In this document: positions 34,321 through 40,039 of the stretch, piece after piece
Layout: every line of letters starts with the position of its first letter
How positions within the stretch are numbered: position 1 is the first letter of the stretch
DNA from: Stigmatella erecta
Lineage (GTDB): Bacteria > Myxococcota > Myxococcia > Myxococcales > Myxococcaceae
Length of the DNA stretch: 64,000 nt
NCBI RefSeq assembly: GCF_900111745.1
Contig: NZ_FOIJ01000010.1
Coordinates: forward strand, 62,001-126,000
Direction of reading: 5' to 3'
Notes under the pieces: generated by a model
Databases searched by the model: none
The model's input: only the letters and a program-made list of their open reading frames with translations
Told to the model about the DNA's origin: nothing
Program-made: the position numbers and the translations under genes

Positions 34321-34818
34321 CTACTTGGTGGTGTCGGAGTGCTCCATGGAGGAGCCCGGGTGGCTGGTGTTGGCCGGGTCGTCCATCGTGCCGGCGCCGC
34401 CCGTGCCGCTCATGTCATCGGCGGTGTTCGCGGGCGGGGCGTTGTTCAGGTCACCCTTGCTGTCCGTGCCCCCGAACGAGTCGGTGCTGTCCATGCTGCC
34501 GGAGCCGCCGGTGCCGTTCACGTTCGAGCCGGTGTCCGGCTCCACGGGCGTCACCGTGCCCGCGCCCCCGGTTCCGCCGGTGTTGAGGTCCGCCCCGTCA
34601 TCGATGTCCTTGCTCTGGGTGGTGTCCTCCAGGTTCGTGCTGCCGCTCGTGCTGCCCGTGCTGTAGTCGCTCGCCCCCGAGCCGCCCGTGGCAGGCGGCA
34701 GCGTGGTGTCCGCCGGCACGGCCGTACGGTCCATCGCCGCATCGTCATTGCGGTTTTGGCAACCCGTGAACGCCAGAGCGGAGGCCATCGCACCGAGAAC
34801 CATCATTCGCTTGAACAT
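34321..34818 (-). CDS. Gly/Ser/Thr-rich low-complexity lipoprotein
   Basis: 165 residues with a signal peptide and lipobox FTGC (about 17-20). The mature protein is disordered and acidic, dominated by Gly, Ser, Thr, Asp and Asn, with the motif GTGGAGT/GTGGSGS recurring four times. Good GGAGGG binding site. No folded domain is visible. Similar low-complexity lipoproteins are common in myxobacteria; function unknown. It has its own terminator. Confidence 0.7.
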   Translation of the reverse strand: MFKRMMVLGAMASALAFTGCQNRNDDAAMDRTAVPADTTLPPATGGSGASDYSTGSTSGSTNLEDTTQSKDIDDGADLNTGGTGGAGTVTPVEPDTGSNVNGTGGSGSMDSTDSFGGTDSKGDLNNAPPANTADDMSGTGGAGTMDDPANTSHPGSSMEHSDTTK

Positions 34819-34984: not shown

Positions 34985-35875
34985 TCAGCGCCGGCGCCGC
35001 AGCACCATCAGCGCGTACTGGAGCCCTCCATCGAGCATGGCCTGCTGAAGCCGCAGGTGTTCGCGCTGCGAGACGGGCCGCGTGCTGCGCACCGGGCCCG
35101 TGGCAGACACCTCCTCCTGCTCGCGCGCCATCAGGTCCATGGTCAGCGTCCAGAAGTTCACCGTGCGGTAGGCCAGGTCCTGGTACAGCTCCAGCTCCAG
35201 CCCGGCCTGGCTCGCGGCCCGGAGGTACTCGTCCGTGGTGCCGATGCGCGTGCGCCAGTACCGGTCGAAGGGGCCCGCCAGCTCCGGGCGCCCGAGAAAG
35301 CAGTCCATGATGACCACGGTTCCCCCGGGCCGCAGCAGCCGGTGCAGCTGCTGGAACCAGGCCGGGCGGGGCAGGTAGCACGAGCTCTCCACCGCCACCA
35401 CGCGGTCGAAGTAGTCACAGCCCGGCACCTCCAGCGCGTCGCACAGGAGCACCCGCACCCGGTCCGCCACCCCTGCCTGCGCCGCGAAGCGCTGCACCAG
35501 CGGCACGTGCGAGGGCGCGATGGTGACGGCCGTCACGTGGGCCCGGTGCTCGGTGGCCCAGTACAGCGAGCCGCCCCCCAGCCCGCACCCCACATCCATC
35601 ACCCGCTTGCCCGCCCAGGACTCGCTCACCGCGTAGGACATCTCGCGCAGCAGCGCCTCCTGGGCATCGTGGATGCGCACCCGCAGCGCCTGCGCGGTGA
35701 GCCCCGGCGGCGGCATGTCGTCCACCAGGCCCGAGTGGTAGTGCACCCGCGGCCCGGGCCCGTAGCGGCGCAGGATGCCCTCCGTCTTGGCGTCGTAGTA
35801 CGCGGCGATCTCCGTCTGCGCTTCGTTCCTGCCCAGGGCTGGGCTGATGCGCGTGAGCGCGGCTTTGACCGTCAT
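34985..35875 (-). CDS. SAM-dependent methyltransferase (GPP/tocopherol methyltransferase-like)
   Basis: 296 residues. Class I methyltransferase fold with motif I VMDVGCGLGGGSLYWA (about 92-107), an acidic strand end after VTAVTIAPSHV, motif II LCDALEVPG, VVAVESSCYLP and motif III LLRPGGTVVIMDCFL. The substrate-side helices resemble the branch that includes geranyl-diphosphate C-methyltransferase and gamma-tocopherol methyltransferase. It is the last gene of a four-gene operon; its ATG overlaps the stop of the isoprenoid synthase gene, which supports an isoprenoid substrate. Confidence 0.75.
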   Translation of the reverse strand: MTVKAALTRISPALGRNEAQTEIAAYYDAKTEGILRRYGPGPRVHYHSGLVDDMPPPGLTAQALRVRIHDAQEALLREMSYAVSESWAGKRVMDVGCGLGGGSLYWATEHRAHVTAVTIAPSHVPLVQRFAAQAGVADRVRVLLCDALEVPGCDYFDRVVAVESSCYLPRPAWFQQLHRLLRPGGTVVIMDCFLGRPELAGPFDRYWRTRIGTTDEYLRAASQAGLELELYQDLAYRTVNFWTLTMDLMAREQEEVSATGPVRSTRPVSQREHLRLQQAMLDGGLQYALMVLRRRR

Positions 35876-36600
35876 GGCATGACCTCCTGAAGAATGGGTT
35901 CGATGCGGCGCAACGCCGCGTCCAGGCACCGCAGCTGCTGGCCGCGCACGCGCTCCACCGCCGCCTGCGCCCAGCGCATCACCTCGCGCTGGTCCGGCCC
36001 CGGCATGCTGAAGAAGCGCAGGTCGCGGCTGCGGATGTCCTCGGCCACGTGGGCGGCGATGCCCAGCCCGTGGCCCACCGGGGCCTTGGCCTCCAGCCGC
36101 GTGCCCGCCCACAACAGGCGCAGGTACGCGGCCCACTGCTGGCCGGCGAGCCCCTCGGCCACCTCCTGGAAGAGGGGCGCCGTCCACTGGCGCGTGCGCA
36201 CCTCCAGCGCCTGGGGGCCCGCGGCCAGCGCCAGGCCCGTGGCCGCGTCCGCCAGCACCCGCCCGGGCAGCTCCGTGCGCGCCAGGGTGGCCCAGGCCAG
36301 GTTCTGCAGGAGGAACTGCACGTAGGGGCCCACCCGCGCGGGCTCCTCGAAGTAGCCGCACTCCCCATCGCACAGGTCATCGGCGAGGTTGCCCGCGGCG
36401 AAGCCCAGGAAGATGCCCACCGCGCGCGGCAGCAGCAGCTCGCGCCTCAGCCCCGCCTCCATGCCCGCCTCGTACAGCAGCACCAGCGGCCCCGGCTGCG
36501 CGGCCTCCAGCGCCGCCACCACGTCCCGCTCGGCCGCGGCCGGCAGGTGCTGGCGCCGCAGCATGCGCAGCGTCTCCTGGTAGATGGCGCCCGCGCTCAT
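35872..36600 (-). CDS. Class I isoprenoid synthase-like protein
   Basis: 242 residues, all helical. An aspartate-rich motif DDLCDGE sits in a helix (AAGNLADDLCDGECGYFEE, about 75-93), the same DDLCD core seen in the terpene synthase at 28834-29889. A second acidic cluster EDIRSRDLRFF (about 190-200) may replace the NSE or second DDxxD motif. It is shorter than usual prenyltransferases or cyclases, so activity is uncertain. ATGA overlaps join it to the kinase-like gene before it and the methyltransferase gene after it, implying one pathway. Confidence 0.68.
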   Translation of the reverse strand: MSAGAIYQETLRMLRRQHLPAAAERDVVAALEAAQPGPLVLLYEAGMEAGLRRELLLPRAVGIFLGFAAGNLADDLCDGECGYFEEPARVGPYVQFLLQNLAWATLARTELPGRVLADAATGLALAAGPQALEVRTRQWTAPLFQEVAEGLAGQQWAAYLRLLWAGTRLEAKAPVGHGLGIAAHVAEDIRSRDLRFFSMPGPDQREVMRWAQAAVERVRGQQLRCLDAALRRIEPILQEVMP

Positions 36601-37964
36601 GGCCGGAACTCCTGGGGCAGGAGCACGCGCAGCACCGCGCCGCCCGTGCGCGCGTTCTGCCGCTCCAGCACGCCCCCGCTGGATCGGATGAGGCACTCGC
36701 TCGCGTACAGCCCCGGGCCCCCGGGGCGCGGGCCCTCGCCGGCGGGCGCTGCGAGGGGCTCCGGGGCCCGCTCCGGGGCCCGCTCCGGGGCGAGCCTGGG
36801 CCCCTCGTCGGAGATGATCATCTCGAGCCTCCCGCTGTAGGCCTCGGTCCGTGCGGTGATGTGCACCCGCCGGGCGGCGCGCGAGCCGTCGCCCTCACAC
36901 GCCTGGGTGACGAGGCTCTCCACCACCCGGCGCATGGTGGTGGTGCCGCCGCGCACCAGGGGCCGCAGGGGCTCGGTGCGGTTCACCTCCACCTGGATGT
37001 CCACGGCGGGGTAGCGCACGCCCAGGCTCTGGCGGACCGAGTCCAGCACGGACATCAGGTCCACGCCCTCCGGGTCGCTCCCGATGAGCCGGCGGCTGCG
37101 CTGGCGCATGTCCTCCACGCGCTCGCGCAGCGCGGTGAGCTGGTCCTGGAGCTGGCGCACGAGCGACTCGAACCCGGCGCGGCCGGTGGGCAGCCTGGGC
37201 CCGCCCACCACCCGGAGCATGTCCGCGGCGGAGCCCGCCGTGAGCAGCCCCTCGTGCAACTCCTGCGTCTGCTGGAGCACCTCGGTGAGCGCCTGGGAGA
37301 GCCTGCCCACGTCGCGCTCCTGGTACTCCAGCATCTGCGCCTGGACGGCGCCGTGCAGCCGCTGCGCCTCGGCGCGAATCTGGTCATGGCGCACGCTGAA
37401 GGTGCCCAGGTACAGCTCGGCCAGCAGGGCCGAGGGGCCCATGACGGCGAACAGGGCCAGGTGCTCGCGGGTGCTGGCGAAGGTGGCCGCCAGCCCCAGC
37501 GCCAGCGCCGTGCCCACCGCGAGGAAGGGGGTGCGCGGGGTGACGCGGAACAGCTGGCCGTGGAAGGCGGCGGTGAAGAGCAGCAGCCCGCCGAAGGCGG
37601 TGGCCCCCCCCAGCGCCGAGAGCGCCATGAGGCTGGCCAGGAAGAACTGGAGCCCCGTGGTGCCCACGAGCGCCAGCACCCAGCCCCACGTCTGGATGGA
37701 GGCGCGGCGGCGGTGCAGCAGCGCGAAGCCCAGGTCCGGCAGCGCGGGCACGAAGCTCAGGAGCGCCTTGCCCAGGGGCAGCGCGAAGAGCGCCTCCGCG
37801 CCGGGCGCCCAGTGGATGGCCGCCAGCATCACCCCCACGAGCACGAGCAGCACCCCCCAGGAGCTCACGCTGCTGGCCTCCAGCACCTGAGCGGGCTGCT
37901 GGGCCCGCACCCACTGCTGGAAGGCCGCCTGGATGGCGGCACGCAAGGTGGTACAGGGGCTCAT
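36597..37964 (-). CDS. Membrane histidine-kinase-like protein with degenerate ATPase domain
   Basis: 455 residues. The N-terminal 190 carry about six hydrophobic helices (for example SWGVLLVLVGVMLAAIHW, LQFFLASLMALSALGGATAFGGLLLF). A long coiled region follows (about 195-330). The C-terminal domain resembles a HATPase_c fold but key features are altered: the N-box helix is VVESLVTQACEGDGS without the expected Asn, and the G1 box reads DEGP rather than DxGxG; a GGPGLYASECLIRSSGGVLE segment corresponds to the G2 region. No typical H-box is seen. It may bind rather than hydrolyse nucleotide. Coupled by ATGA to both neighbours. Confidence 0.7.
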   Translation of the reverse strand: MSPCTTLRAAIQAAFQQWVRAQQPAQVLEASSVSSWGVLLVLVGVMLAAIHWAPGAEALFALPLGKALLSFVPALPDLGFALLHRRRASIQTWGWVLALVGTTGLQFFLASLMALSALGGATAFGGLLLFTAAFHGQLFRVTPRTPFLAVGTALALGLAATFASTREHLALFAVMGPSALLAELYLGTFSVRHDQIRAEAQRLHGAVQAQMLEYQERDVGRLSQALTEVLQQTQELHEGLLTAGSAADMLRVVGGPRLPTGRAGFESLVRQLQDQLTALRERVEDMRQRSRRLIGSDPEGVDLMSVLDSVRQSLGVRYPAVDIQVEVNRTEPLRPLVRGGTTTMRRVVESLVTQACEGDGSRAARRVHITARTEAYSGRLEMIISDEGPRLAPERAPERAPEPLAAPAGEGPRPGGPGLYASECLIRSSGGVLERQNARTGGAVLRVLLPQEFRP

Positions 37965-38260
37965 ACGGCGGTGACCGCCATGTCGAGGGGCAGGGTCTTG
38001 GCTTCGGCGAGCACCTGTCCGGTGAGCGCGCGCAGCTCCTCGACGATGCCCGCCTGGCCCGCGCTCAGGATGCGCACCTCCACCTCGCCGCCGGCCAGCA
38101 CGTGGTGCAGGGCCTCCAGCACCGGCTGCACATGCGGGCTGAACGCCAGCGTCTCCCCACTGCCCTCGATGGCGCCCAGCGCCCGCACGCGCTGGAGGTA
38201 CGCCTCCACCGCGGGGGTGAACGGCGCTGCAACGGGGACGTTCTTGGAGCCGGTACTCAT
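37961..38260 (-). CDS. Small protein heading the isoprenoid operon
   Basis: 99 residues from ATG 38260 with a strong binding site (GGAAGGGAA). Soluble, alpha/beta composition (FTPAVEAYLQRVRALGAIEGSGETLAFSPHVQPVLEALHHVLAGGEVEVRILS), no Cys, no known motif. Its stop overlaps the start of the kinase-like gene (ATGA), so it is the first of four coupled genes. A regulatory or adaptor role is a guess. Confidence 0.6.
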   Translation of the reverse strand: MSTGSKNVPVAAPFTPAVEAYLQRVRALGAIEGSGETLAFSPHVQPVLEALHHVLAGGEVEVRILSAGQAGIVEELRALTGQVLAEAKTLPLDMAVTAV

Positions 38261-38562: not shown

Positions 38563-39243
38563 TCAAAACCGATGACTGGGAGACAAGTCAAATTCCGGTG
38601 TCAAATGCAACGCCCGCGCCTTCTTGGCGCGCTTGCGGCTCAGCTCCACGCCCACCGCGTCCAGCCCCAGGGCATTGGCCACCGCGAGCACCGTGCCGTG
38701 GCCGCAGAACGGGTCCACCACCGTGCGCGTGGCGGTGTGCGCCTGGATGAAACGGCACGCGGCGAGGCACGCCTGCACGCCCATTCCCCGGGTCCATGTC
38801 ACCTCCCCCGCCTCGGGCAGCACGTCCGCCGTGGCCTGGCTCAGGTCCAGCCGCACGCCCCGCGAGAAACCCAGCAGGTGCGAGTACGCGGGCCGGCCGA
38901 ACGTCACCGTGCCGGGGGGGCGCCGGCACACCACCTTGTGAAAGAGCAGCTCGCACCCGGCCTCCTCCGCAGCCCGGCTCACCAGGTAGCCCTTGTCCAC
39001 CCACGTGCCCTCGTGTTTCACATCCGTTTGATAGAAGACGGAGACACCCTCGGGGGGCACCTTCGCCATCACCAGCGCCGCGGCCTGGATGAACCACTGC
39101 TTCCACCCGGCGAGCGTCAGCGCGGGGAACTCGGACACGTCCGGCAGGGAGGTGACGGCCGAGCAGCCCGCCAGCACCCCCTGGGCCGTCAGCCACGCCA
39201 CCGCCTCCGCGCACTCCACCGTCCGCTTCCCTGGCTCCTCCAC
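38563..39243 (-). CDS. DNA/RNA methyltransferase-like protein
   Basis: 226 residues from GTG 39243, which has GGGAGGG seven bases upstream. The C-terminal part carries a SAM-binding motif typical of site-specific nucleic-acid methylases: VVDPFCGHGTVLAVANALGLDAVGVELSRKR. A catalytic D/N/SPPY motif is not obvious, so it may be an RNA methyltransferase of the TRM11/UPF0020 kind or a divergent member. The N-terminal half (LAGWKQWFIQAAALVMAKVPPEGVSVFYQTDVKH) suggests substrate recognition. It diverges from the TPR gene. Confidence 0.65.
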   Translation of the reverse strand: MEEPGKRTVECAEAVAWLTAQGVLAGCSAVTSLPDVSEFPALTLAGWKQWFIQAAALVMAKVPPEGVSVFYQTDVKHEGTWVDKGYLVSRAAEEAGCELLFHKVVCRRPPGTVTFGRPAYSHLLGFSRGVRLDLSQATADVLPEAGEVTWTRGMGVQACLAACRFIQAHTATRTVVDPFCGHGTVLAVANALGLDAVGVELSRKRAKKARALHLTPEFDLSPSHRF

Positions 39244-39364
39244 AGGTGTCCCTCCCTCTCGCCCGGGGCGAGGGCGGGCAGGATGCGGCGGCGGCCCCGG
39301 GGCGTCAAACCGGCAACAACGAGGGGCGCCCGGGCGGCCCCGCGCGGGGTAGACTGGCGCCACC

Positions 39365-40039
39365 ATGAAGCCATCCGCCAAACGCCTCTTCGCGCAGTCT
39401 CGGGCCCACCTCGAGAAGGGCGAAGTGGGCAAGGCCGTGCATGTCCTCAAGCAGGCCATCGCGGAGGAACCGGACGACGTGTCGCTCTGGGCGGAGATGT
39501 ACCGCCAGTGCATGCTGGCCAAGTCCCCGCAGAGCGCGCTGTCGGCCGCCCGGGAGCTGCGGCGCATCGCCCCCACGGAGCCCAACTACATCTACATGCA
39601 CGGCATCGCCGCGCTCACCTCCGGGCAGGCCCAGGAGGCCGCCACCCTGCTGGAGGAGGCGCTCCAGCGCCTGCCCCAGGCCACGCACGTGCGGCGCACG
39701 CTCGTGCAGGTGCTGGAGGCGCTCAAGAAGCCCGAGCGCGCGCGGGAGATTCTCCAGGAGGCCGTGGACCGGGCCCCCACCGACCCGGTCGCGGTGAACG
39801 ACTTGGCGGTGCTCCTCCTGAAGCAGGGCGAGCAGGGCAAGCGCGACGCGGAGCCGCTGCTGCGCCGGGTGCTCTCGGCCCACCCGGATGATCTCGCCAC
39901 CCACCTGAACCTCGCGCTCTCCCTGGCCGACCGCGACGCCGAGGCCGCGCTGGAGCACGCCGACCGCGCCAAGGAGTCCCCGGAGCTGGCCATCCGCGAA
40001 CAGGCCCAGCGCCTGTACCAGCTGCTCGTCCGCCACTGA
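39365..40039 (+). CDS. TPR-repeat protein
   Basis: 224 residues of tandem tetratricopeptide helices (for example AHLEKGEVGKAVHVLKQAIAEEPDDVSLW, GQAQEAATLLEEALQRLPQATHVRR, ALKKPERAREILQEAVDRAPTDPVAVNDLA). Cytoplasmic, no signal. An adaptor role is expected; partner unknown. Confidence 0.8.
   Translation: MKPSAKRLFAQSRAHLEKGEVGKAVHVLKQAIAEEPDDVSLWAEMYRQCMLAKSPQSALSAARELRRIAPTEPNYIYMHGIAALTSGQAQEAATLLEEALQRLPQATHVRRTLVQVLEALKKPERAREILQEAVDRAPTDPVAVNDLAVLLLKQGEQGKRDAEPLLRRVLSAHPDDLATHLNLALSLADRDAEAALEHADRAKESPELAIREQAQRLYQLLVRH

What the first reader, a model, noticed from the sequence alone, without database searches (positions are those of the whole stretch)
34985..38260. Four-gene ATGA-coupled operon: small protein, kinase-like membrane protein, isoprenoid synthase, methyltransferase
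All three junctions are four-base ATGA overlaps, so the products are probably made in fixed ratio. The membrane protein has a kinase-like tail whose N-box and G1 box are degenerate and no clear H-box, so it may sense or bind rather than phosphorylate. Coupling it to an isoprenoid-synthase-like protein and a methyltransferase of the GPP/tocopherol type suggests a membrane sensor tied to synthesis of a methylated isoprenoid. I know of no described system with this composition.
Basis: partly seen in the sequence, partly recalled or inferred. Interest (0 to 1): 0.7.

Follow-up and report, generated by a model that had tools for sequence, protein, structure and literature searches.

The report
Sensor-coupled isoprenoid methylation operon
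A tightly overlapped set of four genes in soil myxobacteria pairs a predicted isoprenoid-methylating enzyme and a new kind of isoprenoid-handling protein with a membrane sensor, which points to an undescribed isoprenoid-linked control or signalling unit whose product is not known.

Summary
The operon is real: four minus-strand genes, A (99 aa), B (455), C (242), D (296), joined by three ATGA overlaps. Where both genes could be placed, the overlap is conserved in 39 of 44 (A/B), 43 of 46 (B/C) and 37 of 39 (C/D) genomes; the other two C/D cases are in-frame fusions.

D is by sequence a prenyl-diphosphate C-methyltransferase of the BezA / C6-FPP-methyltransferase type, catalytic Glu kept. C has no Pfam or NCBIfam match but a confident predicted trans-isoprenyl-diphosphate-synthase fold. 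It keeps the first Asp-rich motif, has an altered second one and lacks the GGKR IPP site, so cyclisation or prenyl transfer is likelier than chain elongation.

B descends from a polytopic histidine kinase. Loss of the N and G1 boxes is peculiar to this species and one close relative; the phosphoacceptor His is kept in 34 of 51 homologues, and one distant locus carries a receiver-like protein after C. A strongly matches only genomes that also have C.

Best reading: a regulated unit that methylates and processes a C10 or C15 prenyl diphosphate, with A and B as control arm. ComQXPA-like logic is possible, but A lacks the C-terminal Trp. My paper searches found no description.

The parts
37961..38260 (-). 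Gene A: small protein, 99 aa, no known family; conserved core around LGAxEG...LHHVLAGGEVEV; predicted fold of low confidence
   Evidence: no family; alignments; mean pLDDT 49.9; distribution
36597..37964 (-). Gene B: polytopic membrane protein (6 hydropathy peaks in residues 32-187), coiled region, C-terminal HATPase_c-like domain; degenerate H, N, G1 and G2 boxes in this species
35872..36600 (-). Gene C: all-helical protein, predicted trans-isoprenyl-diphosphate-synthase fold; first Asp-rich motif DDLCD at residue 74, altered second motif EDIRSRD at residue 187; no GGKR IPP site
34985..35875 (-). Gene D: SAM-dependent methyltransferase of the BezA / C6-FPP-methyltransferase type; Glu163 aligns with BezA Glu170, Phe203 with BezA Trp210
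37961..37964 (-). ATGA overlap of A stop and B start
36597..36600 (-). ATGA overlap of B stop and C start
35872..35875 (-). ATGA overlap of C stop and D start

Best explanation
The four genes form one translationally coupled unit that makes and controls a methylated isoprenoid. Inferred from homology: D takes SAM and a linear prenyl diphosphate (GPP or FPP) and methylates the C6 double bond. Inferred from fold and motifs: C binds the diphosphate through Mg at its DDxxD motif and ionises it, either cyclising it to a small terpenoid or passing the prenyl group to an acceptor other than IPP. Inferred from anatomy: B sits in the membrane as the sensing or anchoring arm, descended from a working histidine kinase; in this species catalysis has probably been lost and B works as a ligand-binding or scaffold protein. 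A is probably a dedicated partner of B and/or C. Shown: the operon, its conservation, C-D fusion in two lineages, fold of C, sequence class of D, kinase ancestry of B. Not shown: any activity, any product, any signal.
For: Order and overlaps conserved. C and D are one open frame in two genomes of different families, G018 and G036. D: BezA E 2.2e-55, C6-FPP methyltransferase E 7.1e-52; the residue aligned with BezA Glu170 is Glu in 44 of 45 D sequences. C: mean pLDDT 90.3; best VIA Z 22.5 over 232 residues, and the 50 rows shown are trans-prenyltransferases; Foldseek best E 7.8e-05; DDxxD in 47 of 49. Correlated decay: where A and B are not found (Citreicoccus-type genus g17, 2 of 2) C has lost DDxxD and D is eroded; where C is not found (genus g43, 16 of 16 genomes) the SAM motif of D is altered in 5 of 5 loci examined. 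In pairwise comparisons dN/dS of the genes was 0.08 to 0.53, i.e. they are kept by selection.
Against: No product or activity is known. D is missing in g8 (6 of 6) and g4 (1 of 1), where A-B-C persists, so methylation is not essential to the core. One Arg of C (R89, 43 of 49) could correspond to the second Arg of the RRG motif of chain-elongating synthases, so loss of the IPP site is not complete by sequence. The hhalign link of C to those synthases is weak (probability 63%, E 6.8e-5). Phe at the BezA Trp210 position does not settle GPP versus FPP.
Confidence: 0.5

Rival explanations
1. Isoprenoid two-component signalling module: C (with D where present) makes a diffusible terpenoid signal, and B is its membrane receptor, relaying by phosphotransfer in lineages that keep His and by other means in those that lost it.
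For: B and C are the most widely paired genes, also adjacent in distant G164 and in G055, where a 124-aa receiver-like protein follows C. Kinase boxes are canonical in those distant members.
Against: The receiver match is below its Pfam cut-off (21.9 of 30.2 bits) and was seen in one genome. No receiver was recognised next to the window operon or in the neighbour map, which used a crude gene caller. The His column is lost in 7 of 7 genomes of the window's genus.
Confidence: 0.25
2. ComQXPA-like peptide pheromone system: C prenylates A, and B senses the modified peptide.
For: Same cast: small protein, isoprenoid-synthase-fold protein with the first Asp-rich motif and an altered second one, polytopic kinase, in one genome a receiver. 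ComQ likewise has FARM and lacks SARM (PMC10853753, passages).
Against: ComX carries a Trp 5-10 residues from its C-terminus (PMC4008528, passages); none of 30 near-full A sequences does. C has no PF00348 match. A is conserved in its core, unlike variable ComX. The 2014 census found none outside Firmicutes (abstract).
Confidence: 0.08
3. C is a non-catalytic prenyl-diphosphate sensor that reports isoprenoid supply to B, and D tunes or marks the bound ligand.
For: Second Asp-rich motif altered in 49 of 49 and no GGKR site; tight B-C coupling.
Against: DDxxD kept in 47 of 49, lost only in g17 where B is not found, which fits catalysis at least as well.
Confidence: 0.12
4. Ordinary clustering: an MIB- or sodorifen-type methyltransferase plus synthase pair that happens to share an operon with an unrelated, decaying membrane kinase.
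For: Methyltransferase-synthase pairs are a known kind (PMC10881772, passages); B is degenerate here; D and B drop out separately in some genera.
Against: A-B-C persists without D in g8 and g4, and B-C with A in G164 and G055, so the kinase is tied to the synthase more widely than the methyltransferase is. B's membrane half stays constrained in the window's genus (dN/dS 0.25-0.30).
Confidence: 0.05

Closest known systems
BezA, GPP C6-methyltransferase of benzastatin biosynthesis (PDB 7fbh), and a C6-FPP methyltransferase (PDB 9tb4)
   Same: Sequence over most of D (E 2.2e-55 and 7.1e-52); catalytic Glu aligned and kept
   Different: Phe instead of Trp210 at the pocket position (Ile aligns there in 9tb4); partner gene is C, a synthase-fold protein, with a membrane kinase in the same operon
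trans-isoprenyl diphosphate synthases (FPP/GGPP synthases, PF00348)
   Same: Predicted fold (Z 22.5), first DDxxD motif
   Different: No Pfam match; second motif [E/I/Q]D..[S/T/A].[D/A] instead of DDxxD; GGKR motif missing; RRG not conserved as a pair
ComQXPA quorum sensing of Firmicutes
   Same: Cast of small protein, synthase-fold protein with FARM only, polytopic kinase, in one genome a receiver-like protein
   Different: No C-terminal Trp in A, no PF00348 in C, no PF07730 in B, different gene order, a methyltransferase added, B often lacks the His
2-MIB / 2-methylenebornane and sodorifen operons (prenyl-PP methyltransferase plus terpene synthase)
   Same: Pairing of a prenyl-PP C-methyltransferase with a synthase-fold enzyme
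   Different: Methyltransferase is C6-type; C matches no Pfam or NCBIfam family; membrane kinase and protein A present
XrtA/PEP-CTERM histidine kinase PrsK (TIGR02916)
   Same: Weak similarity of the C-terminal kinase region of B (21.7 bits)
   Different: Far below the family cut-off of 300; different gene context

Membership tests
BezA-type prenyl-diphosphate C6-methyltransferase (gene D) | Sequence similarity across the enzyme and SAM motif DxGCGxGG | tested here: met
BezA-type prenyl-diphosphate C6-methyltransferase (gene D) | Catalytic Glu170 (role from PMC12471008, passages) | tested here: met
   Glu163 of D aligns; Glu in 44 of 45 D sequences
BezA-type prenyl-diphosphate C6-methyltransferase (gene D) | Substrate choice, Trp210 for GPP (W210A gives FPP) | tested here: inconclusive
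   Phe in 38 of 38 D sequences outside g43 and g17, Ile in 9tb4
BezA-type prenyl-diphosphate C6-methyltransferase (gene D) | Methylation of C6 in vitro | not testable with these tools
   needs assay
Chain-elongating trans-isoprenyl diphosphate synthase (gene C) | Fold | tested here: met
   (predicted model)
Chain-elongating trans-isoprenyl diphosphate synthase (gene C) | First Asp-rich motif DDxxD | tested here: met
   47 of 49
Chain-elongating trans-isoprenyl diphosphate synthase (gene C) | Second DDxxD motif | tested here: not met
   EDIRSRD in the window; 0 of 49 have DD...D at the aligned positions
Chain-elongating trans-isoprenyl diphosphate synthase (gene C) | IPP-site GGKR and RRG residues (motif names recalled) | tested here: not met
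   GGKR falls in a gap; of RRG one Arg (R89) may correspond. Template alignment of 6 sequences only
Histidine kinase (gene B, window) | Phosphoacceptor His, N, G1, G2 boxes | tested here: not met
   Q234, SLVTQA, DEGPR, GGPGL; HATPase_c below cut-off
Histidine kinase (gene B, distant homologues) | Same boxes and HATPase_c above cut-off | tested here: met
   5 of 5 homologues scanned score 56-81 bits; HisKA above its cut-off only in G164
ComQXPA | Trp 5-10 residues from the C-terminus of the pre-peptide | tested here: not met
   0 of 30 near-full A sequences (45 held; 15 were cut short by the fetched stretch)
ComQXPA | ComQ matches PF00348 | tested here: not met
ComQXPA | ComP with PF07730 and PF02518 | tested here: not met
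   PF02518 in homologues, PF07730 in none of the 6 B proteins scanned
ComQXPA | Adjacent response regulator | tested here: inconclusive
   absent beside the window operon; a receiver-like protein below cut-off in G055

The most novel reading that the evidence does not exclude
A Gram-negative isoprenoid communication system: an A-B-C core of small partner protein, membrane kinase receptor and a new family of one-motif isoprenoid-synthase-fold enzyme that makes the signal, ancestrally paired with a receiver, later given a C6-methyltransferase that changes the signal's structure, and in the window's genus run by a pseudokinase receptor. It would be the terpenoid counterpart of ComQXPA without a peptide.
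Probability: 0.22. Interest if true: 0.88.

Novelty: new variant of a known kind. Interest (0 to 1): 0.6.

Why it matters
Myxobacteria are rich in unassigned kinases and unexplained metabolites. A conserved operon that ties a membrane kinase to an isoprenoid-processing protein without family annotation and a C6-type prenyl methyltransferase gives a concrete, testable candidate for isoprenoid-based sensing or signalling outside Firmicutes, and probably a new non-canonical terpenoid. Because it occurs in all 27 genomes of the Myxococcus genus group searched here (the group includes a named M. xanthus strain), it can be tested in a standard laboratory species. The stepwise loss of kinase, synthase and methyltransferase motifs in different genera is also a natural experiment on how such a module comes apart.

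Tried and rejected
ComX reading of A: rejected for lack of a C-terminal Trp. Structure of A: folded from 9 sequences, mean pLDDT 49.9, so no fold search was made with it. PDB sequence search with the C profile: only chance-level matches, best E 0.81. Defence-system reading: PADLOC gave only a generic methyltransferase overlap for D (mad2, 67.9 bits, residues 88-193) and nothing for A, B, C. Plasmid-borne spread of C: no match in the plasmid collection. The weak C-profile hits in G034, G027, G012 and G157 and the second hits in G002 and G055, and the weak A hits in G113, G171, G184 and second hits in G105 and G013, were not examined; the former are probably ordinary prenyl synthases. Chain-elongation reading of C: disfavoured by the missing GGKR motif and altered second motif, not excluded. 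Correlation of pairwise identities between the genes (r 0.84-0.96) was not used as evidence, because shared species history gives the same. dN/dS values rest on single genome pairs: the kinase half of B is 0.32-0.47 in the window's genus, 0.26 in one Myxococcus pair and 0.09 in one g8 pair, while the membrane half of the g8 pair is 0.69, which does not fit a simple story. Other phyla could not be searched with the tools left. Paper searches held no description of this operon; subscription papers are mostly not in that library.
Full report
OBSERVATION. Four genes lie head to tail on the minus strand: A 38260-37961 (99 aa), B 37964-36597 (455 aa), C 36600-35872 (242 aa), D 35875-34985 (296 aa). 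All three junctions are ATGA overlaps. The flanking genes on the same strand, a DNA-methylase-like frame at 38563-39585 and a small repeat-rich lipoprotein-like frame at 34321-34818, are separated by gaps.

WHERE IT OCCURS. The window's assembly is a myxobacterium; its genus group g1 contains the genome whose 269,266-base contig is Hyalangium versicolor. The C profile matches 49 of 195 genomes of the phylum at E up to 0.001; a deeper profile adds G055, giving 50 strong matches among 147 genomes of the class (four further genomes match only weakly). They include 7 of 7 genomes of g1 and 27 of the Myxococcus group g23. Protein A matches 46 of 195 genomes at E below 1e-10, and each of those 46 also has C. 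D matches 56 of 195 at E up to 1e-20: 39 with C beside it, 16 of genus g43 without C, and one other.

ORDER AND COUPLING. Of 49 genomes with C whose stretch I examined, A-B could be placed in 44, B-C in 46, C-D in 39. The ATGA overlap is present in 39 of 44, 43 of 46 and 37 of 39. The two other C-D cases, G018 and G036, from different families, are single open frames joining C and D. Arrangements: A-B-C-D in g1 (7), g15 (1), g23 (26, plus one in which A was not found), and with C-D fused in g27 (1) and, with A-B downstream of the fusion, in g13 (1); A-B-C without D in g8 (6), g4 (1), g34 (1 of 2, the other cut by a contig end); C-D alone in g17 (2); B-C with a divergent A in G164. In 5 of the 16 g43 genomes, which I fetched, B is directly followed by D and C is not found.

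GENE D. D gives the Pfam methyltransferase folds, the best NCBIfam match is GPP 2-C-methyltransferase far below its cut-off (49.8 of 400 bits), but among solved structures BezA (E 2.2e-55) and a C6-FPP methyltransferase (E 7.1e-52) stand far above the C2 enzyme 4f84 (1.5e-11). In the printed alignment BezA Glu170 and Trp210, counted along the line, align with Glu163 and Phe203 of D; their roles come from passages of two reviews. Glu is kept in 44 of 45 D sequences. Phe is kept in 38 of 38 outside g43 and g17. The substrate, GPP or FPP, stays open.

GENE C. No Pfam, NCBIfam or PDB-sequence relative at useful E. The AlphaFold model from 10 sequences has mean pLDDT 90.3. Foldseek's best hits are prenyl diphosphate synthases (E 7.8e-05; MoeN5 and Ord1 prenyltransferases also appear), VIA Z 22.5. 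DDxxD is present in 47 of 49. The second motif is [EIQ]D..[STA].[DA], with DDxxD in 0 of 49. hhalign against 6 prenyl synthases (6 of 20 loci passed my motif filter) aligns both motif regions, probability 63%, E 6.8e-5, with the GGKR stretch opposite a gap; Arg89 may match one Arg of RRG. A cyclase, or a transferase to another acceptor as in ComQ, which also has only the first motif (PMC10853753, passages), fits best.

GENE B. Hydropathy gives 4 to 6 peaks in the N-terminal 200 residues of the seven B proteins tested. In the window H, N, G1 and G2 are all degraded, and so in its near relative G003; the other five g1 genomes keep G1, four of the five keep both N-box Asn, and three of the five keep GLGL. 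The His column is His in 34 of 51: 0 of 7 in g1, 0 of 1 in g15, 22 of 27 in g23, 1 of 5 in g43, 11 of 11 in the rest. Five homologues score 56 to 81 bits for HATPase_c against 23.1 here and a cut-off of 26.4. In G055 B has HELRN, and C is followed by a 124-aa protein with a receiver match of 21.9 bits, E 2.1e-4, below the cut-off of 30.2. B therefore descends from a working kinase that has lost catalysis stepwise.

GENE A. 99 aa, conserved core, no family, model unreliable. No Trp within 5-10 residues of the C-terminus in 30 of 30 near-full sequences.

READING. D methylates, C processes, B and A control. Supporting the unit: C-D fusion, conserved coupling, and decay that runs together. In g17 (2 of 2) A and B are not found, C has lost DDxxD and D has lost its pocket segment; in g43 C is not found and the SAM motif of D is altered in 5 of 5 loci. 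Against a strict unit: D is absent in g8 and g4. A DyP-type peroxidase (Dyp_perox_C 79.4 bits) lies near the locus in 10 genomes, of g8 (6), g4, g13 and g17 (2), so other lineages may use another partner. Many stretches searched for it were too short to show its absence.

NOVELTY. The parts are of known kinds, except that C and A have no family. The combination is not described in what I could search: listings (library of open papers only). The nearest logic is ComQXPA, whose census found none outside Firmicutes (PMC4008528, abstract and passages); membership fails on Trp, PF00348 and PF07730. I rate it a new variant of a known kind, with a bolder reading, a terpenoid two-component signalling system, not excluded.

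Noticed in passing
L024 (record BNCN01000009.1): A record titled Comamonas sp. KCTC 72670 carries the full A-B-C-D operon, about as close to the window as Myxococcus copies are; probably a mislabelled or contaminated assembly.
   Followed up: no
L034:6650-7531, L084:4018-4917, L036 (reverse strand): A DyP-type peroxidase gene lies just upstream of A (g8, g13) or of C (g17); found near the locus in 10 genomes, possibly a fifth, lineage-specific part.
   Followed up: partly
window 34321-34818: Small lipoprotein-like frame rich in Gly/Thr/Ser repeats directly downstream of D; similar frames follow D in 7 other loci of the neighbour map (L043, L041, L026, L025, L079, L088, L036).
   Followed up: no
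window 38563-39585: DNA/RNA-methylase-like frame upstream of A; a similar frame lies upstream in many relatives including those of g8 (cluster c3), useful as a synteny anchor.
   Followed up: no
L139, L140, L141, L143, L144: In genus g43 D sits directly behind B with C gone, and its SAM motif is altered; these D proteins may be non-catalytic.
   Followed up: partly
L177:3549-3920: Stand-alone receiver-like protein right after C in G055, the only such partner seen.
   Followed up: partly
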